A stretch of 64,000 bases of DNA from Thioalkalivibrio thiocyanoxidans ARh2 (GTDB lineage: Bacteria > Pseudomonadota > Gammaproteobacteria > Ectothiorhodospirales > Ectothiorhodospiraceae). Positions 45,889-56,210 of this stretch are shown one piece after another. Location: NCBI RefSeq assembly GCF_000385215.1, contig NZ_ARQK01000057.1, forward strand, positions 47,677 to 111,676, read 5' to 3'. The first letter of the stretch is position 1. Each line of letters opens with the position of its first letter. Below the pieces are notes generated by a model. The model worked only from the letters and a program-made list of their open reading frames with translations, did no database searches and was not told where the DNA came from. Both the position numbers and the translations under genes were made by a program.

Positions 45889-46068
45889 TCGAACCCTCCT
45901 CTTGAATCGAAAATGAAGCGTCACAGCGGGGTCGGCGTCCAGACCCCAAACGGGGGAACCCCCGGGAGTTGCTCTTGAAGAGGGGACGCCAATGAGGGGG
46001 CTTCAGTTCCTCTCGGTAGACAGGGTTTTCGTCCGGACGCCCGACACGCGAAGTTGCAAGCACGTTAT

Positions 46069-46080
46069 TTTTGTACAAAA
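46069..46080. promoter_or_regulatory. Palindromic operator candidate upstream of marR
   Basis: A perfect 12-base palindrome TTTTGTACAAAA lies in the porin-marR divergent gap, 34 bases before the chosen marR ATG. A second small palindrome TGATCA lies at 46086-46091. MarR proteins bind such sites and repress themselves or neighbours, so this may control marR, the porin, or both. Confidence 0.45.
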
Positions 46081-46114
46081 CTATATGATCATTGCCATAC
46101 CGAGCCCATTTGAA

Positions 46115-46633
46115 ATGTCAGCCGTTTCCGCCCAGAGCCAACCCGACCGCACGCCCATGGAGACAGAACCGGATCTTTCGCGTTCCGTGATTCGTCAGTT
46201 GCGCGTGATCATCCGTGCCCTGCAGGGGCATTCGCGGGCGGTCGAGCGTGCCTGCGGGATCAGCGCCTCGCAGTTGTGGGCCCTGTGGGAACTGCAGCGC
46301 ACGCCCGGGCTGAACGTCAGCGATCTTTCGCGGCGGCTGTCGGTGCATGCCTCGACCACCTCGAACCTGCTGGACAAGCTGGAGTACAGCGGGCTGGTCG
46401 AGCGCCGCCGGCCCGAGAAGGACCAGCGCATCGTGCGGCTGTATGTCACGGCCAAGGGCGAAGAGCTTCTGGCCAATGCGCCGGCGGCCCCCCAGGGCGA
46501 GCTGAACCGAGCCCTGCAGGCCCTCCCGCCCGAGCGCCTGGCGGAGCTGGACGGGGGGCTCACCCTCCTGGTCGAGGCCATGAATACCACCGAGCCTCGT
46601 GCTGGCCTGCAGCCGTTCGAGGTGAAAACCTGA
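46115..46633 (+). CDS. MarR-family transcriptional regulator
   Basis: The 172-residue winged-helix regulator. The helix-turn-helix and wing are ISASQLWALWELQRTPGLNV, then HASTTSNLLDKLEYSGLV and RRPEKDQRIVRLYVTAKGEEL, the standard MarR layout. The start is uncertain: ATGs at 46085, 46115 and 46157 are all in frame and none has a good ribosome site. It is divergent from the porin and stands just before the carbamoyl/amide cluster in the same direction, making it the likely regulator of one or both. Ligand unknown. Confidence 0.9.
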   Translation: MSAVSAQSQPDRTPMETEPDLSRSVIRQLRVIIRALQGHSRAVERACGISASQLWALWELQRTPGLNVSDLSRRLSVHASTTSNLLDKLEYSGLVERRRPEKDQRIVRLYVTAKGEELLANAPAAPQGELNRALQALPPERLAELDGGLTLLVEAMNTTEPRAGLQPFEVKT

Positions 46634-46659: not shown

Positions 46660-47064
46660 ATGCGCCCTATCCTGCCTGCCAGCCTCCTGCTCCTCCTTCT
46701 GCTGCCGCTGGCTGCTCTCGCCGAACCTCGCTTTGACGATCCGCCCACGGATTCGCGCGATGGCGGCTTCACCCTGGAATGGAACGCCGAGGGGGCCGTC
46801 GAACTCGAACGGGCAAGCGGACCGGACTTCGATGACGCCCGCGTGATCTATCGTGGCGGAGATACCAGCAGCGTGATCAGCGGCCTGCCGGATGGCGAGT
46901 ACCGGTTCCGTCTGCGAGCCGAGGGTGCGGACGACTGGGCCGACGAGGCCCGTGTTGAAGTGGCGCACCACAGCCTGGCCCGAGCGTTTGGTTTCTTTGC
47001 GCTGGGAGGCGCCGTCTTCCTGGTCCTGATCGTCGCCATCCTGCGCGGCCGACCGCGCGACTGA
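46660..47064 (+). CDS. Small exported/membrane protein with fibronectin-III-like fold
   Basis: The 134 residues start MRPILPASLLLLLLLPLAALA (signal peptide or anchor). A single beta-rich domain follows whose pattern (GFTLEWNAEGAVELERA, then GLPDGEYRFRLRAEG) resembles a fibronectin type III domain. It ends with a membrane helix near residues 107-128 (FGFFALGGAVFLVLIVAIL) and a short basic tail. GGGAA lies 8 bases upstream of the ATG; a GTG at 46639 is an alternative. It lies 26 bases after marR and 68 before the M20 gene. Function unknown. Confidence 0.8.
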   Translation: MRPILPASLLLLLLLPLAALAEPRFDDPPTDSRDGGFTLEWNAEGAVELERASGPDFDDARVIYRGGDTSSVISGLPDGEYRFRLRAEGADDWADEARVEVAHHSLARAFGFFALGGAVFLVLIVAILRGRPRD

Positions 47065-47132: not shown

Positions 47133-48374
47133 ATGCACGAGCTCAAGATCAACATGCAGCGCCTTCAGCAGGACATCAACGAACTGGGGCAGATCGGTCG
47201 CGATGCCGATCGGGGGCTGCACCGCCGTGCCTTCAGCGAGGGTGATCGCGCCGGACGCGAGTGGTTTCGCAGCCGGCTCGAGGCCGCAGGACTGGATGTC
47301 TGGCAGGACGGTGCCGCCAACCTTCATGGCCGGCTCGACTACGACGGCAAGCGCCCGGTGGTTGCCATGGGTTCGCATCTCGATACCGTCCCCGGCGGAG
47401 GCCCACTGGATGGTGCCCTAGGCGTACTGATCGGGCTGGAGGTGCTGCGCACGGCCAAGGAACACGAAGTCGACCTGCAGTATCCCCTGGAGGTCATCGA
47501 CTTCACCGACGAGGAGGGCCGCTTCGGCGGCATGTTCGGCTCGCAGGCGATGGCCGGCAAGCTGACCCCTGAAAGCATCAGTCATGCCCGGGATCTCGAG
47601 GGCATCACGCTGGTCGAGGCGATGGCGGACTGGGGGCTTGATGCCGACGATGCACTGAACGCCCGTCGTGATCCGCACACCCTGCATGCCTTCATCGAGA
47701 CCCATATCGAGCAGGGCCCGGTGCTGGATCGCCGCGGCCTGAGCGTGGGGGTGGTCGAGGCCATTACCGGCCTGTTCAAGTGGGAGGTGCGCCTGAAGGG
47801 GCAACCGAATCATGCGGGCACCACGCCCATGGACATGCGTATTGATGCCTTCCAGGGGCTGGCCGAGTTTGGCGGCGAGATCAATCGCCTGCTGGAGGAG
47901 CACGGCAGCCCGAACTCGCGCGCCACCATTGGCCGCGTGGAGCTTTCGCCGGGTGCGGCGAATACGGTCCCGGGTGCGGCAACGTTCTCCTTCGAGGTGC
48001 GCGACACTGACGAGAAGGTGCTGACCGCACTGGCCCACGCGGCCCGGCGTACCTTGTCGAGTCTCGCGCGCCGCCGCGATCTGATGTTCGAGTTCGACGT
48101 GCTCTCCGAGATCGACCCGGTGCGCTGCGATCCAGGGGTCGTGCAGACCATCGAGACGACAGCGGAGCGCATGGGCCTGGAATACCTGACCATGCCGAGC
48201 GGGGCTGCGCACGACACGCAGAGCATGAGCGCGATCACGCGCACGGGCATGATTTTTGTGCCGAGCCTGCAGGGTCGTAGCCATTCCGCGGCGGAATGGA
48301 CAAACTGGGAGGACATCGAGACCGGCGCCAACCTGACACTGCAAAGCGTCCTGGCCCTGGCCGCCCGTTCGTGA
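47133..48374 (+). CDS. M20 hydantoinase/carbamoylase-family amidohydrolase
   Basis: This binuclear metallo-amidohydrolase is of the N-carbamoyl-L-amino acid hydrolase / allantoate amidohydrolase / beta-ureidopropionase type. The 413 residues start MHELKINMQRLQQDINELG with GGAG 6 bases upstream. Metal-ligand motifs are MGSHLDTVPGGGPLDG (His82, Asp93), DEEGRF (Glu127-Glu128) and HIEQGPVLDRRGL. HAGTTPMDMR belongs to the dimerisation/substrate domain. Known members cleave the ureido group of N-carbamoyl amino acids to CO2, NH3 and the amino acid. With the carbamoyltransferase downstream, a carbamoylated amino acid is the likely substrate; the exact one is not decidable from sequence. Confidence 0.92.
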   Translation: MHELKINMQRLQQDINELGQIGRDADRGLHRRAFSEGDRAGREWFRSRLEAAGLDVWQDGAANLHGRLDYDGKRPVVAMGSHLDTVPGGGPLDGALGVLIGLEVLRTAKEHEVDLQYPLEVIDFTDEEGRFGGMFGSQAMAGKLTPESISHARDLEGITLVEAMADWGLDADDALNARRDPHTLHAFIETHIEQGPVLDRRGLSVGVVEAITGLFKWEVRLKGQPNHAGTTPMDMRIDAFQGLAEFGGEINRLLEEHGSPNSRATIGRVELSPGAANTVPGAATFSFEVRDTDEKVLTALAHAARRTLSSLARRRDLMFEFDVLSEIDPVRCDPGVVQTIETTAERMGLEYLTMPSGAAHDTQSMSAITRTGMIFVPSLQGRSHSAAEWTNWEDIETGANLTLQSVLALAARS

Positions 48375-48410
48375 CCGTCTACCATCACCGCGATCCAAGG
48401 ACAGCCCGGT

Positions 48411-49154
48411 ATGGCCAATAACGACAACGTCTCCCAGATCACCGACTACGACGCCCTGGATCCGCTGCGCGAGCAGTACCAGGAGAGCCTGATCACGACC
48501 CCGGTCCTGCGCCAGGAGCTGCGCGAGCATCACGTCGCCCTGCTGTGCATCGACCTGCAGTACCTGGACGCCGCGCGCGGCCACGGTGTGTTTGCCGACT
48601 CGGTCCAGTCGGGGGTCCCGCCCGAGGCACAGGAGTACTACTTCAACCGCCTGGAGCAGACGGTGCTCCCGAACGTGCGCCGGCTGCAGGATGCGTTTCG
48701 CGAGCAGGGGCTGGAGGTGATCCACACACGCATCCGCTCGCTGACCCACGACGGCCGCGACCGCAGCCCGGGGCACAAGCGTCTGGGGCTGCATGCCGCG
48801 CCCGGCTCCAAGGACGCGGAGTTCGTCGAGCAGGTGGCGCCGGTGGGCGACGAGATTGTGCTGGACAAGACCGCCAGCGGGGTCTTCAACTCGACTAACC
48901 TGCACTACATCCTGCGCAACCTGAACATATCGGCCCTGTTCATCGTCGGCGTCTATTCCAACGAGTGCGTATCCACGGCGGTGCGCGATGCCTGTGATCT
49001 GGGCTTCTATGTCACGCTGATGGACGACGCCACCGCGACGGTGACCCCGGAGATGCAGAAGGCGACGATCACCACCATCAAGGACCGCTACGCCCGCGTG
49101 ATGACCACCGACGAGGCGATCCGCGAGATCAAGAAGGTGAAGGAGGCCTCGTGA
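48411..49154 (+). CDS. Isochorismatase-fold cysteine amidohydrolase
   Basis: The 247 residues carry the complete catalytic triad of the family: Asp48 (LLCIDLQ), Lys153 (VLDKTASG) and Cys186 (GVYSNECVSTAV). Relatives include N-carbamoylsarcosine amidase, ureidoacrylate hydrolase, biuret hydrolase and nicotinamidase. The N-terminus is about 40 residues longer than minimal members. It lies 36 bases after the M20 gene, and its stop overlaps the symporter GTG by 4 bases. It probably hydrolyses an amide or ureido bond in the same pathway. Confidence 0.92.
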   Translation: MANNDNVSQITDYDALDPLREQYQESLITTPVLRQELREHHVALLCIDLQYLDAARGHGVFADSVQSGVPPEAQEYYFNRLEQTVLPNVRRLQDAFREQGLEVIHTRIRSLTHDGRDRSPGHKRLGLHAAPGSKDAEFVEQVAPVGDEIVLDKTASGVFNSTNLHYILRNLNISALFIVGVYSNECVSTAVRDACDLGFYVTLMDDATATVTPEMQKATITTIKDRYARVMTTDEAIREIKKVKEAS

Positions 49155-50617
49155 CCGGCCTCGACGCCCCGATCCTCCCGACCTCCATCGCCTGGGGGCT
49201 GCTGATCGCGTTCAGCATCCTCTGGGTGTTGCTCGGCTGGTGGCTGGGTCGTCGCAACCGAACCGCCGAGGACCACATGCTGGCCGGGCGCAACGTGGGG
49301 CTGGCGCTGGCCACCGCGACCGCGATGGCCACCTGGGTCACCGCCAATACCACGATGACCGCCCCGCAGCTGGCACTGCAGCTGGGCGTCTGGGGCATGC
49401 TCGGCTACTCGCTGGGGGCGCTGGGCCTGATCCTGTTCGCGCCGCTGGCGCGGCGCATCCGCGAGCTGATGCCGGGCGGGTTCACCTCCGGGGACTTTAT
49501 CCGGCTGCGGTTTGGCACCTTTACCTGGCGGGTATTCCTGGTGGTCTCGCTGATCTATGCCTTTGGCTGGCTGGTCTCGATGGCCATGGCCGGTGGCGTA
49601 CTGATCAATGCTCTCGCCGGGATCGATTATCGCGTGGGCATGAGCGTGATCCTGACGGTCTGCGTGATCTATACCCTGCTGGGCGGTCTGCGCGCTGTCA
49701 TCGGGACCGACTTCATCCAGACCATCATCATCATCGCCGGTGCGGCGTTCATCGCCTGGCTGACCATCGACCGGGTCGGCTTCGAGGCGATCCACTTCAA
49801 CCTGATGGAAGAGCGCCCGGAACTGCTGAGCCTGCTGTTCCCGGCCGCGATCATGTTCCTGTTCAATAACCTGCTGTTCGGGGTCGGCGAGATCTTCCAC
49901 TCCAACGTCTGGTGGTCCCGCGCGTTCGCCTTCGGCCGCAACGTCGGCTTTCGTGCCTACCTGCTGGGCGGATTGCTGTGGCTGCCGATTCCGATCGTCG
50001 CCGGCTTCGTCGCCCTGGCCACGCCGGCGCTGGGCATCAACGTGCCCGCCGCGGACATGGTCGGGCCGCTGGTCGCGGCCGAGGTGCTCGGACTTACGGG
50101 CGCGATCGTGGTCTTCATCGTGGTGTTCGCCGCACTGGCCTCGAGCCTCGATTCGCTGCTGGCCGCGACCTCGGACCTGGTCACCCGCGACATCTATCGC
50201 GGCCACATCCGTCCGCAGGCCAGCGAGCAGAGCCAGTTCCGTGCGACCAAGGTGATCGTCGTGCTGCTGGGGCTGCTGACCTGGCTGGCCGCGAGCTATC
50301 GCGGCGAGTTGCCGATCATCGGCTCGCTGGCCGAGCTGTTGTACTTCACCGGTGCGTTCGTGGCATCCGCGATCTGGCCAATCGTCGCCGGGCTGTACTG
50401 GCGGCGGGCGAACCCTCATGGCGCGGCCTGGTCGATGATATTGGGGTCGGGCATCGGACTGGCCAGCTATTTCCTGATCGGCTTTTATGTCGCGGCACTG
50501 GTGGGCGCGGCCGTCTCCCTGGCCGTGATGGTGCTGAGTACCTGGCTGGCGCCCCGGTCGTTTGACTGGGATCGTCTGTCCCGCGATGCCTCGACCGAGG
50601 AGGTCCGGACCGCATGA
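49151..50617 (+). CDS. Sodium:solute symporter (SSS family)
   Basis: The 488-residue carrier with about 13 membrane helices starts MTGLDAPILPTSIAWGLLIA. AEDHMLAGRNVGLALATATAMATW is the conserved TM1-2 region of SSS carriers, and ASSLDSLLAATSDLVTRDIYR is the typical TM8-9 loop. Family members take up proline, pantothenate, urea, sugars and nucleobases with Na+. The GTG start overlaps the amidase stop (GTGA), and its TGA overlaps the ATG of the miniprotein (ATGATGA). Likely substrate: the compound processed by the surrounding enzymes. Confidence 0.93.
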   Translation: MTGLDAPILPTSIAWGLLIAFSILWVLLGWWLGRRNRTAEDHMLAGRNVGLALATATAMATWVTANTTMTAPQLALQLGVWGMLGYSLGALGLILFAPLARRIRELMPGGFTSGDFIRLRFGTFTWRVFLVVSLIYAFGWLVSMAMAGGVLINALAGIDYRVGMSVILTVCVIYTLLGGLRAVIGTDFIQTIIIIAGAAFIAWLTIDRVGFEAIHFNLMEERPELLSLLFPAAIMFLFNNLLFGVGEIFHSNVWWSRAFAFGRNVGFRAYLLGGLLWLPIPIVAGFVALATPALGINVPAADMVGPLVAAEVLGLTGAIVVFIVVFAALASSLDSLLAATSDLVTRDIYRGHIRPQASEQSQFRATKVIVVLLGLLTWLAASYRGELPIIGSLAELLYFTGAFVASAIWPIVAGLYWRRANPHGAAWSMILGSGIGLASYFLIGFYVAALVGAAVSLAVMVLSTWLAPRSFDWDRLSRDASTEEVRTA

Positions 50618-50736
50618 TGATCTCGAGTACCGCCTTGTCAGTGATTGTCGTGGTTGCCACGCTGGTGGCCAGCCTGACCCCGATCCTGCTGCTGGCCCTG
50701 TTTATTCGCGACTGGAAAAAAGGATGCCTCTGGTGA
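50614..50736 (+). CDS. 40-residue single-span membrane miniprotein
   Basis: ATGATG overlaps the symporter stop, and the 41-codon frame ends in TGG TGA at 50736, where the last bases overlap the next gene's GTG. The peptide begins MMISSTALSVIVVVATLVAS, continues LTPILLLALFIRDWKKG and ends CLW. It has one hydrophobic helix of about 25 residues and a basic, Trp-containing tail. Overlap with both neighbours and a clean helix argue that it is translated. It may be a small accessory subunit of the symporter; no known family is recognised. Confidence 0.7.
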   Translation: MMISSTALSVIVVVATLVASLTPILLLALFIRDWKKGCLW

Positions 50737-51806
50737 ACTACACCGAAGATCCCCTGCACGTGCTCCACCCGAAAGACGGCGCCGCCGGTACCGATCGGCC
50801 GAAGGCCTTGCTGGCTGCGGTAGAAGAGGACCCGGACCCGCTGCTGAAGCTGGCGGCCGCGCATGTCGTCTCCAGTCAGCAGTTCTCGCGCGAGGAGCTG
50901 CTGCAACTCTTTCGTCTGGCGGCGCAATACGAGACGACACCGGCACTCATGCACCTGCCCCTGGCGGGCAAGATCCTGATCAGCGCGTTCTACGAGCCGT
51001 CCACGCGCACCCGGCTGTCGTTCGAGAGCGCCTGGCACCGCCTCGGCGGGGCGGTGATGTCGATCACCGACCCCAAGAGCACCGGCATCGCCAAGGGCGA
51101 GTCGCTGGCGGACATCGCCGAGATGTTCAACAACTACGGCGACGTTCTGGTGCTGCGCTCCTCCGATGGCGAGGCGGCGCACAACATGCTGGAGAACCTG
51201 CGGATCCCGCTGGTCAACGCCGGCAACGGGATCGACGAGCACCCGACCCAGGCGCTGGCGGACGTCTACACCCTGGCCAAGTGGCGCCCGGAGCTGTTCA
51301 CCGGCCCCGTGGCGCCGGAAAACCGCATCAAGGTCGGCATCATCGGCGTACCGTCGCGCATGCGCACGGTGCGTTCGCTGCTGCGGCTGCTGAGCCTGTT
51401 CCCCGAGGCGATCGCGGAGGTCGTGATCATCTCGCGCGAGGACGAGAACTTCGATCCCGACCAGCGCGAAGAACTGGAGGAGGCCGGTCTGCAACTGCGT
51501 GTAGTGCACGAACTGGATCCGGTGCTGCCGGATCTGGACGTGGTGTACATCAACGCCATCGCCTGGGTGGGCGATACCTTCGAGTCGATGGGAGAGGGGC
51601 TGAAGCTCGACCGCAACTCCCCGCTCAAAGACAGCGCGATCATCATGCATCCGCTGGCACGGGGTGCGGAGCTGTCCACCGACCTCGACGACACCCCGCA
51701 CAACTGGTACTTCGCCCAGGCCCGCGGGGCGGTGTTCGTGCGCATGGCGCTGCTGACCAGCGTGGTGCGCCGCATCAGCCAGGTCATGGATACGCCGGAA
51801 GGCTGA
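50733..51806 (+). CDS. ATCase/OTCase-superfamily carbamoyltransferase, substrate unknown
   Basis: The GTG at 50733 has AAGGA 8 bases upstream and overlaps the miniprotein stop; the ATG at 50724 abuts that site. The length is 357 residues. Carbamoyl-phosphate residues are intact: STRTR (90-94), Arg142, HPTQ (170-173), and Arg211 in RMRTVRS. By alignment from memory with Escherichia coli ATCase, the aspartate loop (TRxQ, Arg229 and Gln231) is replaced by YINAIAWVGD (272-281), and HPLPR by HPLAR (306-310). So the carbamoyl acceptor is probably not aspartate. There is an N-terminal extension of about 40 residues. It is not the usual pyrB context. Confidence 0.88.
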   Translation: MNYTEDPLHVLHPKDGAAGTDRPKALLAAVEEDPDPLLKLAAAHVVSSQQFSREELLQLFRLAAQYETTPALMHLPLAGKILISAFYEPSTRTRLSFESAWHRLGGAVMSITDPKSTGIAKGESLADIAEMFNNYGDVLVLRSSDGEAAHNMLENLRIPLVNAGNGIDEHPTQALADVYTLAKWRPELFTGPVAPENRIKVGIIGVPSRMRTVRSLLRLLSLFPEAIAEVVIISREDENFDPDQREELEEAGLQLRVVHELDPVLPDLDVVYINAIAWVGDTFESMGEGLKLDRNSPLKDSAIIMHPLARGAELSTDLDDTPHNWYFAQARGAVFVRMALLTSVVRRISQVMDTPEG

Positions 51807-51807
51807 G

Positions 51808-51862
51808 CCCGGGCTGCAACTGAACCGCGAGCGGCGCGGCGCGTCGGGTTCGCCCGGGCTGC
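51808..51862. repeat. GC-rich repeat pair before the amidotransferase gene
   Basis: GCCCGGGCTGC occurs at 51808-51818 and again at 51852-51862. Because GCCCGGGC is self-complementary, the two can pair as a stem enclosing about 36 bases. This lies in the only sizeable gap between the carbamoyltransferase and the amidotransferase and could modulate read-through. Confidence 0.35.
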
Positions 51863-51901
51863 GCCCCGCTCGCCGAGAACGAATAACCAAGGAGACATGC
51901 C

Positions 51902-53920
51902 ATGTGTGGCATCGCCGGAATCTTCAACGCCGACCCGAACCGGAAGGTCGACCCGCAAACCCTGGTCAACATGGCCGCGATCCAGTACCACCGTGGCCCC
52001 GATGGCTTCGGCTACAAGACGCTGGATGATCGCGGGGTGGGCTTCTCGCACGCCCGGCTGTCGATCATCGACCTGGACGAGAACCGCGGCCGCCAGCCGT
52101 TCTCCATGCCCGACGGGTCGATCATGACCGCGGTTAACGGCGAGCTGTACGACTACAAGCGCATCCGTACCGACCTGACCTCGCGCGGGGTGAAGTTCCG
52201 CACCAAGAGCGACTCCGAGATGGTCATGCACCTGTACCAGCGCGAGGGCCTGGAGGACGCGCTCAGGCACTTCCGCGGCGAGTTCGCGATCTCCTTGTAT
52301 GACCGCGAGCATGACCGCCTGATCCTGATCCGCGATCGCTTCGGCATCAAGCCGCTGTACTTCACCGAGGCCAACGGCAGCTTCGTGTTCGGCTCCGAAC
52401 TGAAGGTGCTGTTCGCCAACCCCGACGTCCCGCGCCAGTTCGCCGACGACGGCCTGTACCACCAGCTGATGCAGACCATGGTCCCGGGGACCACCGCCTT
52501 CGAGGGCATCCAGCAGGTGAAGCCCGGCCACATGGTCATTGTCGAGCGGGCCCATGGCAGGCTGAAGGTGCGCCAGGAGAAGTACTGGGACATGGACTTC
52601 CCGCTGGCCTCCGAGCGCCCGCCCGAGGAAGACACCGACGAGAACTACTGGATCGAGGGGGTGCGCGAACAGCTGATGGAGGCCGTCCAGCTGCGCCTGG
52701 AGGCCGACGTGCCGGTCGCCTGCTACCTCTCCGGCGGGATCGACTCCTGCATCACCCTGGGCCTGGCCTCGGCCAGCCAGCAGTCGCCGGTCAAGGCCTT
52801 CACCATCGGCTTCGACAACGACGACTACGACGAGACCGCGATCGCCCGCGAGATGGCCGAGAGCGTCGGTGCCGACCAGGACATCCTGCGGCTGGATGCC
52901 GACCACCTCTACGACAACTTCGAAGAGGCCCTGTGGCACGCCGAGCGCACCATCTACAACACGCTGGGGGTGGCCAAGCTGCTGATGAGCCGCCACGTGA
53001 ACGAGGCCGGCTACAAGGTGGTGGTCACCGGCGAGGGCTCGGACGAGCTGTTCGGTGGCTACCCGGCGTTTCGCCGCGACATGTTCCTGCACGGACTGGA
53101 CACCCTGCCGGAGGCCGACCGCGCCGCCTGGCAGCAGATGCTGAACGAGTCCAACGAGCTGTTCTCCGGCGCGATGCTGGCCGAGGACGAGGTCGATGAC
53201 CCCGAGTTCACGAAGATGATGGGCTTTACCCCGTCCTGTCTGCAGCCCTGGCTGGCGGCAGCCGAGCACGTGCCCGGCCTGCTGGCGCCGGAGCGCCGCG
53301 AGCGCATGCAGGGCTATCAGCCCGGCAAGGCGATCGCCAACGCCCTGGACGACGACATGCTGGACGGACGCCATCCGCTGGACAAGGCCCAGTACGTCTG
53401 GATCAAGACCATGCTGGAGGGGCAGATCCTGACCTGGGGTGGCGACCGCATGGACATGGCCAACTCCATGGAGGCGCGCCCGCCGTTTCTCGACCACCAC
53501 CTGGCCGAGTTCTGCGCCCAGCTGCCCCCCACGATGCGCATCAAGGGCCGCACGGAGAAATACGTACTGCGCGAGTCGATGAAGGGCCTGCTGCCGAAGG
53601 TGCTCTACGAGCGCGAGAAGTTCGCCTTCATGGCCCCGCCGGCGCATACCGATCCGGTCAAGTGGGCGGCGATGAAGGCCCTGGCCGATCGCTACCTGTC
53701 GCCGGAGAAGGTGGCCGAGGCCGGGCTGCTGGATCCCGAGGGCGTGCGTCGCGTGTTCGAGCTGCACGAGGACGAGAACACCCCGGCGGCCACCCAGGTC
53801 CAGCTGGATGCGGTGATCAACCACATGATCGGGGTGCAGGTGCTGCACGAGAAGTTCGTCGCCACCGATATCCCGGCGCTGGCCCGCCAGAAGGCCGACG
53901 AGTTCGGCTGGCGCCCGTAA
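51902..53920 (+). CDS. Asparagine-synthetase-type glutamine amidotransferase
   Basis: The 672-residue ATP-dependent amidating enzyme. The class II glutaminase domain starts MCGIAGIF (Cys2 nucleophile) and includes HRGPDGFGY and VNGELYDY. The synthetase domain has the PP-loop YLSGGIDSC (about residue 280), VVTGEGSDELFGGY and MEARPPFLDHHLAEF. AAGGAG lies 7 bases upstream. It could be a plain AsnB, but relatives such as AsnO amidate other carboxylates, for example in the osmolyte N-acetylglutaminylglutamine amide. Its place after an atypical carbamoyltransferase favours amidation of a carbamoylated amino acid. Confidence 0.88.
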   Translation: MCGIAGIFNADPNRKVDPQTLVNMAAIQYHRGPDGFGYKTLDDRGVGFSHARLSIIDLDENRGRQPFSMPDGSIMTAVNGELYDYKRIRTDLTSRGVKFRTKSDSEMVMHLYQREGLEDALRHFRGEFAISLYDREHDRLILIRDRFGIKPLYFTEANGSFVFGSELKVLFANPDVPRQFADDGLYHQLMQTMVPGTTAFEGIQQVKPGHMVIVERAHGRLKVRQEKYWDMDFPLASERPPEEDTDENYWIEGVREQLMEAVQLRLEADVPVACYLSGGIDSCITLGLASASQQSPVKAFTIGFDNDDYDETAIAREMAESVGADQDILRLDADHLYDNFEEALWHAERTIYNTLGVAKLLMSRHVNEAGYKVVVTGEGSDELFGGYPAFRRDMFLHGLDTLPEADRAAWQQMLNESNELFSGAMLAEDEVDDPEFTKMMGFTPSCLQPWLAAAEHVPGLLAPERRERMQGYQPGKAIANALDDDMLDGRHPLDKAQYVWIKTMLEGQILTWGGDRMDMANSMEARPPFLDHHLAEFCAQLPPTMRIKGRTEKYVLRESMKGLLPKVLYEREKFAFMAPPAHTDPVKWAAMKALADRYLSPEKVAEAGLLDPEGVRRVFELHEDENTPAATQVQLDAVINHMIGVQVLHEKFVATDIPALARQKADEFGWRP

Positions 53921-53974: not shown

Positions 53975-54859
53975 TCAATCCCAGTTGATCCGGGCGTCCT
54001 GGTAAAAGCCGGGGTCGTCGCTGGTGGCGCCCTGCAGGGTGCAGACGGCTGCCGCGAAGGCCAGCGCGCGTTCGAGGGTGGTCGGCCAGTCCCAGCCCTG
54101 CCGCATGCCGAGCAGGACCACACTGGCAAAGGCGTCGCCGGCCCCGACCGCATCGCGCAGTTCGGGTACCGGCGGGGCCGGGGCCGCCACGCGTTCGCCC
54201 TCGACGGTGCGAATGCTCGCCCCGTCGGCCCCGGCGGTGACCACCAGGGCCTGACGGATGTCCGCCTGCTCCAGCAGGGCCGTTTCCGCCTCGGTACCCG
54301 CAGTCCCGGGGGCCAGGGTTTCCAGCTCGTCCTGGTTCAACTTGACCACGTCGGCGCCACTGATCAGGGCCAGCGCCGTGTCGCGGGTATACCAGGGTTC
54401 GCGCAGGTTCACATCCACGAAGCGGTGCCCTGCGCGTTCGCGCAGGTGTGCCAGCAGATCGTGGTTCCCCCGGCGCAGCGCCAGGGTCCCGTGGTAGAGC
54501 AGTGGCGTGGCGTCGGGCAGTCGATCCGCCCAGGCTGCGGGTACGTCGTCATAGGCCTGGTCCGGCACGATGGTGTAGCTGGGCTCGCCGTGGGCGAGTT
54601 CGACGCGGACCTCGCCGGTCGGTGCCTCGGGGTGCCGGTACAGCCCGCTGGTGTCCATGCCGATCGCATCCATGCGGGCCCGCACCTCGGCACCCGCCGG
54701 GTCGTCGCCAATACCGCCGACGAAACAGACCGGCTCTCCGAGCTGATGCAGGTTCCAGGCGACATTGAACGGTGCCCCTCCCAGGACGCGCTGTCCATCG
54801 GGAAAGACATCGAACAGGACCTCGCCAAAGATCAGCTGGGGGGATGACTCGGCACTCAC
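53975..54859 (-). CDS. PfkB-family carbohydrate kinase (fructokinase-like)
   Basis: The 294 residues start at a GTG (MSAESSPQLIFGEVLFDVF) with AAGGAGG 5 bases upstream. The N-terminal sugar motif is LGGAPFNVAWNLHQLG, with VGGIGDDPAG. The C-terminal ATP/anion-hole signature is RDAVGAGDAFASVVLLG with catalytic Asp. Overall it resembles bacterial fructokinases. It is convergent with the amidotransferase gene. Sucrose is a minor osmolyte in some haloalkaliphilic sulfur oxidisers, so an osmolyte link is conceivable but unsupported here. Confidence 0.88.
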   Translation of the reverse strand: MSAESSPQLIFGEVLFDVFPDGQRVLGGAPFNVAWNLHQLGEPVCFVGGIGDDPAGAEVRARMDAIGMDTSGLYRHPEAPTGEVRVELAHGEPSYTIVPDQAYDDVPAAWADRLPDATPLLYHGTLALRRGNHDLLAHLRERAGHRFVDVNLREPWYTRDTALALISGADVVKLNQDELETLAPGTAGTEAETALLEQADIRQALVVTAGADGASIRTVEGERVAAPAPPVPELRDAVGAGDAFASVVLLGMRQGWDWPTTLERALAFAAAVCTLQGATSDDPGFYQDARINWD

Positions 54860-54908
54860 ATTGGCCTCCTTCCTATTCGGGAAACACGGATCAGTGCTTC
54901 CCTGGCAA

Positions 54909-56210
54909 TCAGGATGGGTGAGGCTCGCGGTCGGCCCGCTCCACGCGGTCGCGCCCGAGCTGTTTCGCCTGTAGCAGGGCATGATCCGCGGCGTCGAAGA
55001 TGGCCTCGGTGGACTGTCCGGCCACGATCGGGGACATGCCCGCCGATATCGTCACGCGCAGCCGCGTCTTGCCGGCGCGCACGATTAGCCGATCCACGGC
55101 CTCGCGGATCGAATCGGCGCGCCGCTGACAGGTGTCCGGGTCCGAGGTGAGGATCATCACGAACTCCTCGCCCCCGTAGCGGGCGACAAAATCCTCGCTG
55201 CGCACGCCCTCGGCGAGGATCTCCGCAACCGCCTTCAGGACCTTGTCCCCGGCGCTGTGGCCGTATGCGTCGTTGATTGCCTTGAAGCGGTCGATGTCCC
55301 AGACCAGCAGGCAGGCCGGTTGCTCCGGCCCCAGATCCTCGCGCAGTCCGTCCAGATAGTGCTCGAACGCACTGCGGTTGGGCAGCCCGGTCAGATTGTC
55401 GCGGTAGGCCTCGGCCCGCGCCTGATCCAGTCTCTTGCGCAGCGCATGGACCTGCGACTCCAGCGTACGACCCTTCGCCCGCAGCAGGCGGTTGCGTTCC
55501 AGGGCCTCGAGCAGGTCGGTCTCTTGCTGGTTGCGAAAGGTCGCCACATGTTCGACGACCCGATCCAGGCCCCGGGTAATCTCCTGGCGCAGGGTGCCGA
55601 TGTCCTCGTGGTCATCCATGCGGCCTTTCATGGCCCGAACGTCGTCCGAGATGCCGTCGTGCAGGGTGGCAACCGAGGCGCGCGCCCGTTCGCTGCGCGC
55701 CTCGTCTTCCGACAGGGCCGAGTCGACATCCTCCAGGCGATGCCAGATTTCTCCCACGACCTCGGAGAGTTCCTCGCGCTCGTGCATGGCGCGCTCGCAC
55801 TTGTCGTGCAGCACCAGGAAGAGCTGCGAGAGCGTGCGTTCAATCTCGGAGCGATCGCGCCGCTCCGCAGCGCGGTGCAGGTCCTCCAGGCCGGGATCGA
55901 GGAAATCGAATCCGTTGAGTCCGCGGCGCACGACCTCCAGCATCGTGGTCGCCAGATCCTCGTGCTGATCCGAGCTGCGTACGGCGTCGGCCAGCTGAAC
56001 CCCGAGCCGATCCATCCAGGCGGAGTCGGGCGGGCGGGCCTCCACCGCACGGGAAAGATCCTGAACCGCGCCCTCCAGGGTGGGCACGCGGGCCCCAACC
56101 ACCGCCAGTGCCCGCAGCGCCACACGTCTCAGTGCGTCCTGCTGGGCCTGTTCGCGCTCGAGGCGCCGCTCGAGGTCGATGATGGTCCTGCGCATCTCGC
56201 TGGCGGACAT
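54909..56210 (-). CDS. Diguanylate cyclase (GGDEF domain) with long helical N-terminus
   Basis: The 433 residues start at MSASEMRRTIIDLERRLERE (an upstream ATG at 56252 lacks a ribosome site). Residues 1-260 are almost wholly helical, with coiled-coil stretches and no membrane segment, so the sensor is cytoplasmic. The C-terminal GGDEF domain has DNLTGLPNRSAFEHYL, WDIDRFKAINDAYGHSAGD and an active-site GGEEF. No RxxD inhibitory site is apparent just before it. The N-terminal organisation resembles cyclases with a DUF3369-like or uncharacterised helical input. It should make cyclic di-GMP. Confidence 0.9.
   Translation of the reverse strand: MSASEMRRTIIDLERRLEREQAQQDALRRVALRALAVVGARVPTLEGAVQDLSRAVEARPPDSAWMDRLGVQLADAVRSSDQHEDLATTMLEVVRRGLNGFDFLDPGLEDLHRAAERRDRSEIERTLSQLFLVLHDKCERAMHEREELSEVVGEIWHRLEDVDSALSEDEARSERARASVATLHDGISDDVRAMKGRMDDHEDIGTLRQEITRGLDRVVEHVATFRNQQETDLLEALERNRLLRAKGRTLESQVHALRKRLDQARAEAYRDNLTGLPNRSAFEHYLDGLREDLGPEQPACLLVWDIDRFKAINDAYGHSAGDKVLKAVAEILAEGVRSEDFVARYGGEEFVMILTSDPDTCQRRADSIREAVDRLIVRAGKTRLRVTISAGMSPIVAGQSTEAIFDAADHALLQAKQLGRDRVERADREPHPS

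What the first reader, a model, noticed from the sequence alone, without database searches (positions are those of the whole stretch)
47133..53920. Gene set for making, importing and recycling a carbamoylated amino-acid amide, possibly the osmolyte N-alpha-carbamoyl-L-glutamine 1-amide
Seen: on one strand with short gaps or overlaps lie an N-carbamoyl-amino-acid-hydrolase-type M20 enzyme, an isochorismatase-fold amidase, a Na+ symporter, a miniprotein, a carbamoyltransferase with an atypical acceptor pocket, and an asparagine-synthetase-type amidotransferase. Known: carbamoyltransferases put a carbamoyl group on an amino group; AsnB/AsnO-type enzymes turn a carboxylate into an amide (AsnO does this in the osmolyte N-acetylglutaminylglutamine amide); the two hydrolase families remove exactly such groups. 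Also known, from memory: Galinski and Oren described N-alpha-carbamoyl-L-glutamine 1-amide as a compatible solute of Ectothiorhodospira marismortui, a member of the family this window resembles; I know of no assigned genes for it. Inference: carbamoyltransferase plus amidotransferase could convert glutamine to this solute, amidase plus carbamoylase could return it to glutamine, and the symporter could retrieve it. Alternative: a ureide salvage operon in which the carbamoyltransferase runs backwards to give carbamoyl phosphate; the amidotransferase fits that poorly.
Basis: partly seen in the sequence, partly recalled or inferred. Interest (0 to 1): 0.88.

Follow-up and report, generated by a model that had tools for sequence, protein, structure and literature searches.

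The report
Likely carbamoyl-glutamine-amide osmolyte gene set
A gene set shared by many salt-water and soda-lake bacteria, and present in the type strain of the species in which the salt-protecting compound N-carbamoyl-glutamine amide was discovered, likely encodes the missing pathway that would make, recapture and recycle this compound.

Summary
In detail: six same-strand genes (47133-53920) encode an M20 carbamoylase-type hydrolase, an isochorismatase-fold amidase, a Na+ symporter, a 40-residue miniprotein, a third carbamoyltransferase (besides PyrB and ArgF) and an asparagine-synthetase-like amidotransferase. A membrane protein at 46660-47064 belongs too. The host is a Thioalkalivibrio.

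Carbamoyltransferase and amidotransferase orthologs occur in the same 23 of 369 class genomes. In 80 of 80 carbamoyltransferases examined the Arg and Gln that bind aspartate's side chain are replaced, while the alpha-carboxylate Arg stays; 77 of 77 amidotransferases lack both aspartate-binding residues of AsnB. Both are thus not the textbook enzymes and together fit amino acid -> N-carbamoyl amino-acid amide.

Glutamine as acceptor, osmolyte function, symporter cargo and step order are inferred; nothing was measured, and what I read reports no such solute from Thioalkalivibrio. Verdict: likely (about 0.65) the unassigned pathway of Galinski and Oren's solute; a new variant of a known kind.

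The parts
45992..46633 (+). MarR-family regulator, likely regulator of the cassette
   Evidence: Pfam MarR; a homologue, in part only ~30-36% identical, is found in 43 of 80 related loci, immediately upstream in Thioalkalivibrio and Ectothiorhodospira, several kb away in Idiomarina. Role inferred, by analogy with the MarR repressor PA3458 of the NAGGN operon (PMC8070244, passages read).
46660..47064 (+). 134-aa protein, predicted membrane-anchored (fibronectin-III-like by eye), predicted symporter partner
   Evidence: No Pfam match; found in 62 of the 69 loci with a linked symporter and in none of the 11 without; the 7 misses are contigs that start in or just before the symporter (L068: in the amidase). 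Beside the unlinked symporter in three Ectothiorhodospira loci read.
47133..48374 (+). M20 hydantoinase/carbamoylase-family amidohydrolase, predicted to remove the carbamoyl group
   Evidence: Best model NF006771, a subfamily named allantoate amidohydrolase, 535 bits (cut-off 399, met); TIGR01879 374 bits (cut-off 204, met); best equivalog ErtE N-carbamyl-L-glutamate amidohydrolase 396 bits (cut-off 520, not met); nearest solved structure 3n5f N-carbamoyl-L-amino acid hydrolase.
48411..49154 (+). Isochorismatase-fold amidase, predicted to remove the terminal amide
   Evidence: Pfam Isochorismatase 114.6 bits; solved relatives include cysteine hydrolases, N-carbamoylsarcosine amidohydrolase, biuret hydrolase and RutB; far below the BiuH and RutB cut-offs.
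49151..50617 (+). Sodium:solute symporter (SSS), predicted to recapture the solute
   Evidence: Pfam SSF 116.2 bits; below every NCBIfam cut-off listed, e.g. panF 92.8 of 328; linked in 69 of 80 loci; of the 11 loci without it, 7 genomes were searched and 6 have an unlinked ortholog at 65-76%.
50614..50736 (+). 40-aa miniprotein with one strong hydrophobic segment, ending in -LW, predicted small subunit of the symporter
   Evidence: Translation; counterpart (30-44 aa as detected, nearly always 39-40, ending in LW or IW) in 69 of 69 loci with a linked symporter and 0 of 11 without; also after the unlinked symporter in three of four loci read; no Pfam match.
50724..51806 (+). Carbamoyltransferase of a new subclass, predicted acceptor L-glutamine
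   Evidence: OTCace_N and OTCace Pfam domains (scanned as the longer ORF from 50562); third carbamoyltransferase of the genome; STRTR 80/80, HPxQ 79/80, R167-equivalent R214 80/80, R229/Q231 equivalents never R or Q (0/80), HPLA instead of HxLP 80/80.
51902..53920 (+). Glutamine-dependent amidotransferase of asparagine-synthetase type, predicted to amidate the 1-carboxylate
   Evidence: GATase_7 + Asn_synthase; Cys2 77/77, SGGxD 77/77, but D320 -> Ile (77/77) and R325 -> Gly/Ala (77/77) of E. coli AsnB; 1 of 78 loci did not cover these positions.

Best explanation
[quoted passage not shown] Proposed steps, all inferred: (1) the carbamoyltransferase (50724-51806) moves the carbamoyl group of carbamoyl phosphate to the alpha-amino group of L-glutamine, holding the alpha-carboxylate with Arg214 and a neutral side chain in a pocket that has lost the aspartate side-chain clamp; (2) the amidotransferase (51902-53920) adenylates the remaining alpha-carboxylate and amidates it with ammonia from a second glutamine, as AsnO does for N-acetylglutaminylglutamine; the uncharged product accumulates under salt stress; (3) the Na+ symporter with its 40-residue partner and the 134-aa protein recaptures leaked solute; (4) when osmolarity falls, the isochorismatase-fold amidase frees the carboxylate and the M20 carbamoylase then frees glutamine; (5) the MarR protein likely controls the set. 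Shown: gene order, conservation, co-occurrence, presence in the producer type strain, and residue changes. Not shown: substrates, product, salt response.
For: Producer: E. mobilis DSM 4180 (L060) has MarR-M20-amidase-CT-ASN, 71-80% identical for the four enzymes; PMC7824335 (passages read) lists E. marismortui as DSM 4180T; PMC1224877 and PMC3857566 (passages) name this species for the solute. Only three CT-like matches there: this one and two at 32-33% identity. Co-occurrence: 23 of 369 class genomes (the window's own among them) carry a CT ortholog (60% identity or more) and the same 23 an ASN ortholog, in 19 genera and 15 families; 2 more genomes have only ~40% CT relatives and no ASN at the threshold used. 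Neighbourhood: ASN in 78 of 80 loci; one miss is a contig end (L068), the other (Thiorhodospira sibirica) has ASN elsewhere. Pockets: alpha-carboxylate Arg kept 80/80, beta-carboxylate Arg/Gln lost 80/80 (roles: PMC7878868 passages, PMC4581275 section 5); ASN lost both Asp-binding residues 77/77 (named as D and R in PMC8554201, passages). The best-scoring M20 equivalog model, though below its cut-off, is N-carbamyl-L-glutamate amidohydrolase. A MarR repressor beside an AsnO-based osmolyte operon is a studied parallel. In E. mobilis DSM 4180 the symporter module lies divergent to a TrkH K+ transporter.
Against: No product, assay or expression data. Residues fit any alpha-amino acid with a neutral side chain, not glutamine alone. 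The best M20 model, over its cut-off, is a subfamily named allantoate amidohydrolase, a ureide enzyme by name. ASN passes the asparagine synthase model TIGR01536 (420 of 267 bits) and keeps GEGSDE, whose acidic residues in human ASNS are modelled to meet a free amine (that they map to this motif is my inference), whereas AsnO, whose acceptor amine is acylated, has GQGADE; this would also fit amidation before carbamoylation. The solute is called minor in E. marismortui and gave no Raman signal there, though no reference spectrum existed. No report of it from Thioalkalivibrio was found; glycine betaine is the solute reported, and the main text of a T. versutus salt transcriptome holds neither 'carbamoyl' nor 'asparagine synth'. 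Amidase and M20 orthologs are absent within the flanks of the Idiomarina and Aliidiomarina loci. In the producer the symporter is unlinked. That the record 'E. mobilis DSM 4180' is the strain studied in 1991 rests on PMC7824335 and recall; the 1991 paper is not held.
Confidence: 0.65

Rival explanations
1. Same two-step chemistry, different acceptor: the pair makes an N-carbamoyl amide of another neutral amino acid (for example asparagine), or of several, still as a solute; the E. marismortui compound then comes from elsewhere or from a side activity.
For: The pocket evidence excludes an aspartate-like side-chain clamp but does not name the side chain; 240s-loop positions vary somewhat (A/S/T and A/S/V).
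Against: The compound of this type that the papers read report is the glutamine one, from the species whose type strain carries the cassette; glutamine is also the expected amide donor for ASN; the best M20 equivalog model acts on N-carbamyl-L-glutamate (below its cut-off).
Confidence: 0.17
2. Ureide salvage: imported carbamoyl amides are opened by the amidase and M20 enzyme and CT runs backwards to give carbamoyl phosphate.
For: Two hydrolases and a symporter in one operon; solved relatives of the amidase act on biuret, ureidoacrylate and N-carbamoylsarcosine; the best M20 model, over its cut-off, is named allantoate amidohydrolase.
Against: ASN, by family an ATP-spending amide-forming enzyme, is the constant partner (78 of 80 loci; 23 of 23 class genomes), while the hydrolases are dispensable (M20 in 55, amidase in 43 of 80 loci).
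Confidence: 0.06
3. Nitrogen reserve: the same compound (four nitrogens, six carbons) is made chiefly to store nitrogen and is mobilised by the two hydrolases; osmoprotection is secondary.
For: Hydrolases directly beside the synthetic genes in the sulfur-oxidiser and Ectothiorhodospira loci; the compound is nitrogen-rich (formula from its name).
Against: Hydrolase orthologs are missing near the core in many carriers; named carriers are almost all marine, hypersaline or soda-lake genera (habitats recalled); the compound is described as an osmotic solute.
Confidence: 0.07
4. Ordinary enzymes in an unusual place: CT is a second aspartate carbamoyltransferase and ASN a true asparagine synthetase.
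For: Names in public records say aspartate carbamoyltransferase; fold nearest to ATCases; ASN passes the TIGR01536 cut-off (420 against 267 bits).
Against: The RxQxER motif of all known ATCases (PMC4581275) is absent (0 of 80) and TIGR00670 is below cut-off (200.7 against 236.95 bits); the Asp-binding D and R of AsnB are absent (0 of 77); an own PyrB exists elsewhere.
Confidence: 0.03

Closest known systems
NAGGN (N-acetylglutaminylglutamine amide) pathway, asnO-ngg, e.g. PA3459-PA3461 with MarR repressor PA3458
   Same: Neutral, N-capped, C-amidated glutamine derivative as osmoprotectant; asparagine-synthetase-type amidotransferase makes the amide; MarR gene nearby (PMC8070244, passages).
   Different: Capping group here would be carbamoyl, from a carbamoyltransferase, not acetyl from Ngg; ASN scores 302 of the 570 bits needed for the AsnO model and host, E. 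mobilis DSM 4180 and T. sibirica each have a separate true AsnO; here also hydrolases and a symporter.
Aspartate carbamoyltransferase (PyrB)
   Same: Fold, carbamoyl-phosphate site, alpha-carboxylate Arg.
   Different: RxQxER replaced by an N-A-I-A-W-V-G-D type loop; HxLP replaced by HPLA; extra ~45-residue N-terminus.
Ureidoglycine transcarbamylase (UGTCase) and the other non-ATCase/OTCase transcarbamylases reviewed in PMC4581275
   Same: Precedent for ATCase-branch enzymes with new acceptors (sections 5 and 8 read).
   Different: UGTCase has H(T/S)LP and proposed S258/K261; here HPLA and the N-A-I-A-W loop.
Asparagine synthetase B
   Same: Glutaminase domain with Cys, SGGxD ATP loop, GEGSDE.
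   Different: Asp-binding D320 and R325 replaced, as mDAP-amidating Listeria AsnB also lacks the D and R (PMC8554201, passages).
N-carbamoyl-L-amino acid hydrolase / ErtE / allantoate amidohydrolase subfamily PRK09290
   Same: Hydantoinase/carbamoylase family; over the cut-offs of TIGR01879 and NF006771; closest solved structure 3n5f.
   Different: Below every equivalog cut-off listed, including ErtE and AllC; substrate untested.

Membership tests
Transcarbamylase superfamily (motifs as given in PMC4581275) | SxRT carbamoyl-phosphate motif | tested here: met
   STRTR in 80 of 80
Transcarbamylase superfamily (motifs as given in PMC4581275) | HPxQ motif and conserved beta-4 Arg | tested here: met
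   HP 80/80, Q 79/80 (one K), R145 80/80
Transcarbamylase superfamily (motifs as given in PMC4581275) | HxLP motif with cis Leu-Pro | tested here: not met
   HPLA in 80 of 80; the review notes that some variations of these motifs exist, so fold membership stands
Aspartate carbamoyltransferase | RxQxER in the 240s loop | tested here: not met
   R229 position A/S/T and Q231 position A/S/V in 80 of 80; TIGR00670 200.7 of 236.95 bits
Ornithine carbamoyltransferase | DxxxSMG in the SMG loop | tested here: not met
   Loop reads NAIAWVGD (window), alignment; TIGR00658 90 of 281 bits
Asparagine synthetase (AsnB) | N-terminal Cys and SGGxD | tested here: met
   77 of 77 with coverage, of 78 loci
Asparagine synthetase (AsnB) | Asp-binding Asp and Arg (D320, R325 of E. 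coli; numbers recalled) | tested here: not met
   Ile 77/77 and Gly/Ala 77/77 (alignment; a 2-residue gap lies just after these positions)
Asparagine synthetase (TIGR01536) | Score over curated cut-off | tested here: met
   420.3 of 267.1 bits
NAGGN amidotransferase (AsnO, TIGR03104) | Score over curated cut-off | tested here: not met
   302.4 of 570.1 bits
Hydantoinase/carbamoylase family (TIGR01879) | Score over curated cut-off | tested here: met
   374.2 of 204 bits
Subfamily NF006771 (PRK09290.1-5, named allantoate amidohydrolase) | Score over curated cut-off | tested here: met
   535.2 of 399 bits; the allantoate deiminase equivalog AllC is not met, 259.6 of 597.75
N-carbamyl-L-glutamate amidohydrolase ErtE (NF058540) | Score over curated cut-off | tested here: not met
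   396.3 of 520 bits
Sodium:solute symporter family (Pfam SSF) | Score over gathering score | tested here: met
   116.2 of 22.8 bits; TIGR00813 not met, 150 of 184
[quoted passage not shown]
   E. mobilis DSM 4180, L060
[quoted passage not shown] ASN amidates N-carbamoylglutamine | not testable with these tools
   needs enzyme assay
[quoted passage not shown]
   needs NMR or LC-MS; no such data for other carriers in the papers read

The most novel reading that the evidence does not exclude
A solute described from one purple bacterium is a common osmolyte of marine and soda-lake Gammaproteobacteria and some Leptospiraceae, made by a tenth class of transcarbamylase (a glutamine carbamoyltransferase that dropped the HxLP proline) plus an AsnB offshoot that amidates carbamoylglutamine, and recaptured by a three-part Na+ symporter that contains an obligatory 40-residue subunit ending in Leu-Trp or Ile-Trp.
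Probability: 0.45. Interest if true: 0.85.

Novelty: new variant of a known kind. Interest (0 to 1): 0.78.

Why it matters
The solute was described in 1991 and four full-text searches of an open-licence library listed no paper that assigns its genes, as far as the listings and the three papers opened show. If right, the cassette gives it a pathway, adds a new acceptor class to the transcarbamylases, corrects many records now called 'aspartate carbamoyltransferase' and 'asparagine synthase', and predicts the compound in Idiomarina, Kangiella, Thiohalophilus and others (in Nitrosococcus oceani only the CT was seen). It also exposes a conserved 40-residue symporter partner.

Tried and rejected
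Ureide salvage with CT backwards: judged unlikely because ASN, not the hydrolases, is the constant partner. True aspartate carbamoyltransferase or asparagine synthetase: judged unlikely on residues. First idea that Ectothiorhodospira lacks the symporter: wrong; it is unlinked in the five Ectothiorhodospira genomes searched. A ~40%-identical CT relative in G191, G274 and G300: no homologue of ASN in the stretches read, and in the two whose protein I looked at (L174, L175) the STRTR motif is altered, so set aside. Extraction of PyrB/ArgF references failed twice through strand mistakes (their PyrB/ArgF rows are meaningless) and was put right. First miniprotein coordinates were one base off, corrected. 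The regex census missed 16 loci and was replaced by the alignment-based one. The print came out empty and was redone. Promoter and terminator scan: nothing above chance. Paper search for solutes of Idiomarina, Kangiella or Nitrosococcus: 59 papers held three terms, 12 were listed, one was opened and does not mention carbamoyl. Structure model of CT (15-sequence alignment, mean pLDDT 77, pTM 0.83) confirms the ATCase fold but its 240s loop, residues 279-290, is below pLDDT 50, so it says nothing on the acceptor.


Full report
1. Observation. The six genes are present as described, on the + strand with gaps or overlaps of 36, -4, -4, -13 and 95 bases. Directly upstream on the same strand are a 134-aa protein with hydrophobic ends (46660-47064) and a MarR regulator (45992-46633). 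The window lies in a 2.77-Mb genome whose nearest relatives are Thioalkalivibrio. The carbamoyltransferase (CT) is the third in this genome: the other two matches are at 31-32% identity, PyrB and ArgF by their aligned motifs.

2. Spread and linkage. A scan of 84,980 species genomes found 294 relatives of CT; the best 80 were kept and examined, 214 were not seen. In these 80 loci (flanks up to 10 kb, some cut by contig ends) the amidotransferase (ASN) is found in 78, the symporter (SSS) in 69, M20 in 55, the amidase in 43. ASN is missing in L068, whose contig ends 100 bases after CT, and in L065 (Thiorhodospira sibirica), where a 74% ortholog lies elsewhere in the genome. In three loci (L075, L079, L110, the last two Leptospiraceae) M20 and amidase stand between CT and ASN, so these two seem to move as a unit. 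In the Idiomarina and Aliidiomarina loci neither hydrolase ortholog is within the flanks; in 13 loci, Kangiella among them, there is only a 43-48% identical M20 neighbour without the amidase. The constant core is therefore CT + ASN.

3. Independent co-occurrence. In 369 genomes drawn from the class (the window's own and E. mobilis DSM 4180 among them), CT orthologs of 60% identity or more occur in 23 and ASN orthologs (E up to 1e-150) in 23, the same 23 genomes, in 19 genera and 15 families; two further genomes (G191, G300) have only a ~40% CT relative and no such ASN. From the coordinates, both genes lie side by side on one contig in 20 of the 23; in G061, G237 and G339 they lie on different contigs of assemblies with about 270-410 contigs. 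A Fisher value computed on genomes (5e-37) ignores relatedness and is only illustrative.

4. The producer. L060 is recorded as Ectothiorhodospira mobilis DSM 4180. PMC7824335 (passages) lists E. marismortui as DSM 4180T; PMC1224877 (passages) says E. marismortui is also known as E. [quoted passage not shown] PMC3857566 (passages) says, in 2013, that the solute was found in one organism only and calls it minor; PMC7824335 speaks more loosely of purple sulfur bacteria. L060 carries MarR-M20-amidase-CT-ASN with 72, 74, 71 and 80% identity for the four enzymes. This genome has three CT-like matches in all. Its symporter ortholog is unlinked and is flanked by a relative of the 134-aa protein and a 39-aa miniprotein, divergent to a TrkH potassium transporter. 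Six further Ectothiorhodospira loci (L057-L059, L061-L063; L057 and L058 are both E. shaposhnikovii) have the same four-enzyme run.

5. Acceptor pockets. In ATCase the alpha-carboxylate of the acceptor is held by R167 and the beta-carboxylate by R229 and Q231 of the RxQxER loop (PMC7878868 passages, in Arabidopsis numbering; PMC4581275 section 5, in E. coli numbering). In all 80 CTs the R167 equivalent (R214) is kept, while the R229 equivalent is A/S/T (67/10/3) and the Q231 equivalent A/S/V (68/11/1); HxLP reads HPLA in 80 of 80; the carbamoyl-phosphate residues checked are intact, except one Q176K (equivalences, which agree). The loop has a gap against ATCases just after these positions, so single-residue equivalence is approximate. 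Reading: an alpha-amino acid with an uncharged side chain. For ASN, the Asp-binding Asp and Arg of E. coli AsnB (said to be absent also from the mDAP-amidating Listeria AsnB, PMC8554201 passages; that these are D320 and R325 is recalled) are Ile and Gly/Ala in 77 of 77 covered (78 loci). The glutaminase Cys and ATP loop are intact. Reading: an acyl-adenylating amidotransferase whose acceptor is not aspartate, although the general model TIGR01536 is passed. The retained GEGSDE cluster, whose acidic residues in human ASNS are modelled to meet a free amine (PMC6748925 passages; mapping inferred), leaves the order of the two steps open; AsnO has GQGADE there.

6. Symporter module. All 69 loci with a linked SSS have, between SSS and CT, a small ORF with a strong hydrophobic segment, nearly always 39-40 residues and ending in (L/I)W; 0 of 11 loci without SSS have one (in those loci the gap is short or absent, so this half is weak). 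A relative of the 134-aa protein is in 62 of 69, and the 7 misses are truncated contigs. Of the 11 loci without SSS, seven genomes were searched: six have an unlinked ortholog at 65-76%, one (L072) has none. Four of these unlinked symporters were read: three are flanked by both small partners, in T. sibirica neither was found. Neither partner has a Pfam match. I infer one transporter complex; cargo is unknown and the solute is the natural guess.

7. Hydrolases. M20 passes two subfamily models, TIGR01879 (hydantoinase/carbamoylase) and NF006771 (named allantoate amidohydrolase), and no equivalog; the best equivalog is ErtE, N-carbamyl-L-glutamate amidohydrolase, 396 of 520 bits. The isochorismatase-fold protein has carbamoyl- and amide-cleaving solved relatives. 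From recalled knowledge of L-carbamoylases, which bind a free carboxylate, the amidase should act first.

8. Literature limits. Four searches that named the compound or pathway terms listed no gene assignment; I opened three of the papers listed (passages only); the library holds open-licence papers only, and the 1991 paper is not in it. In T. versutus D301 under high salt, glnA and nitrogen uptake genes rise while the betaine-synthesis genes do not (PMC9062515 passages); the authors tie this to betaine, but it would equally suit a second nitrogen-rich solute; its main text does not contain 'carbamoyl' or 'asparagine synth'. The solute reported for Thioalkalivibrio in what I read is glycine betaine.

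9. Verdict. A carbamoylated amino-acid amide as product: about 0.8. The glutamine compound in particular: about 0.65. Novelty: enzymes of known superfamilies in a new subclass and a new combination, hence new variant of a known kind.

Noticed in passing
window 50614-50736 and L039-L118: A conserved ~40-residue miniprotein family with one hydrophobic segment, ending in (L/I)W, found in 69 of 69 loci where this SSS symporter is linked to CT; no Pfam match for the window's copy.
   Followed up: partly
window 46660-47064: 134-aa fibronectin-III-like (by eye) protein family, no Pfam match for the window's copy, that travels with the symporter.
   Followed up: partly
L191 1672-5443: In E. mobilis DSM 4180 the unlinked symporter module lies divergent to a TrkH potassium transporter gene, another gene of osmoadaptation.
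   Followed up: partly
L174 9212-10363, L175 2486-3688: Distant (~40%) CT relatives whose STRTR motif is altered (possible non-catalytic paralogs) with no homologue of ASN in the stretch read; G274 has one besides a true CT elsewhere.
   Followed up: partly
window 53975-54982 (-): PfkB-type sugar kinase convergent with ASN; an ORF cluster that begins alike recurs in five related loci (cluster 34), perhaps a fructokinase.
   Followed up: no
G000:C39:31608-33380, G041:C29:8807-10570, G040:C4:198130-199896: Host, E. mobilis DSM 4180 and T. sibirica each carry a true AsnO (911-985 bits, cut-off 570), so they may also make NAGGN.
   Followed up: no
L065, L179, L192: Thiorhodospira sibirica, said in PMC7824335 to have no annotated osmotic stress genes, has CT, ASN and symporter at three separate places.
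   Followed up: partly
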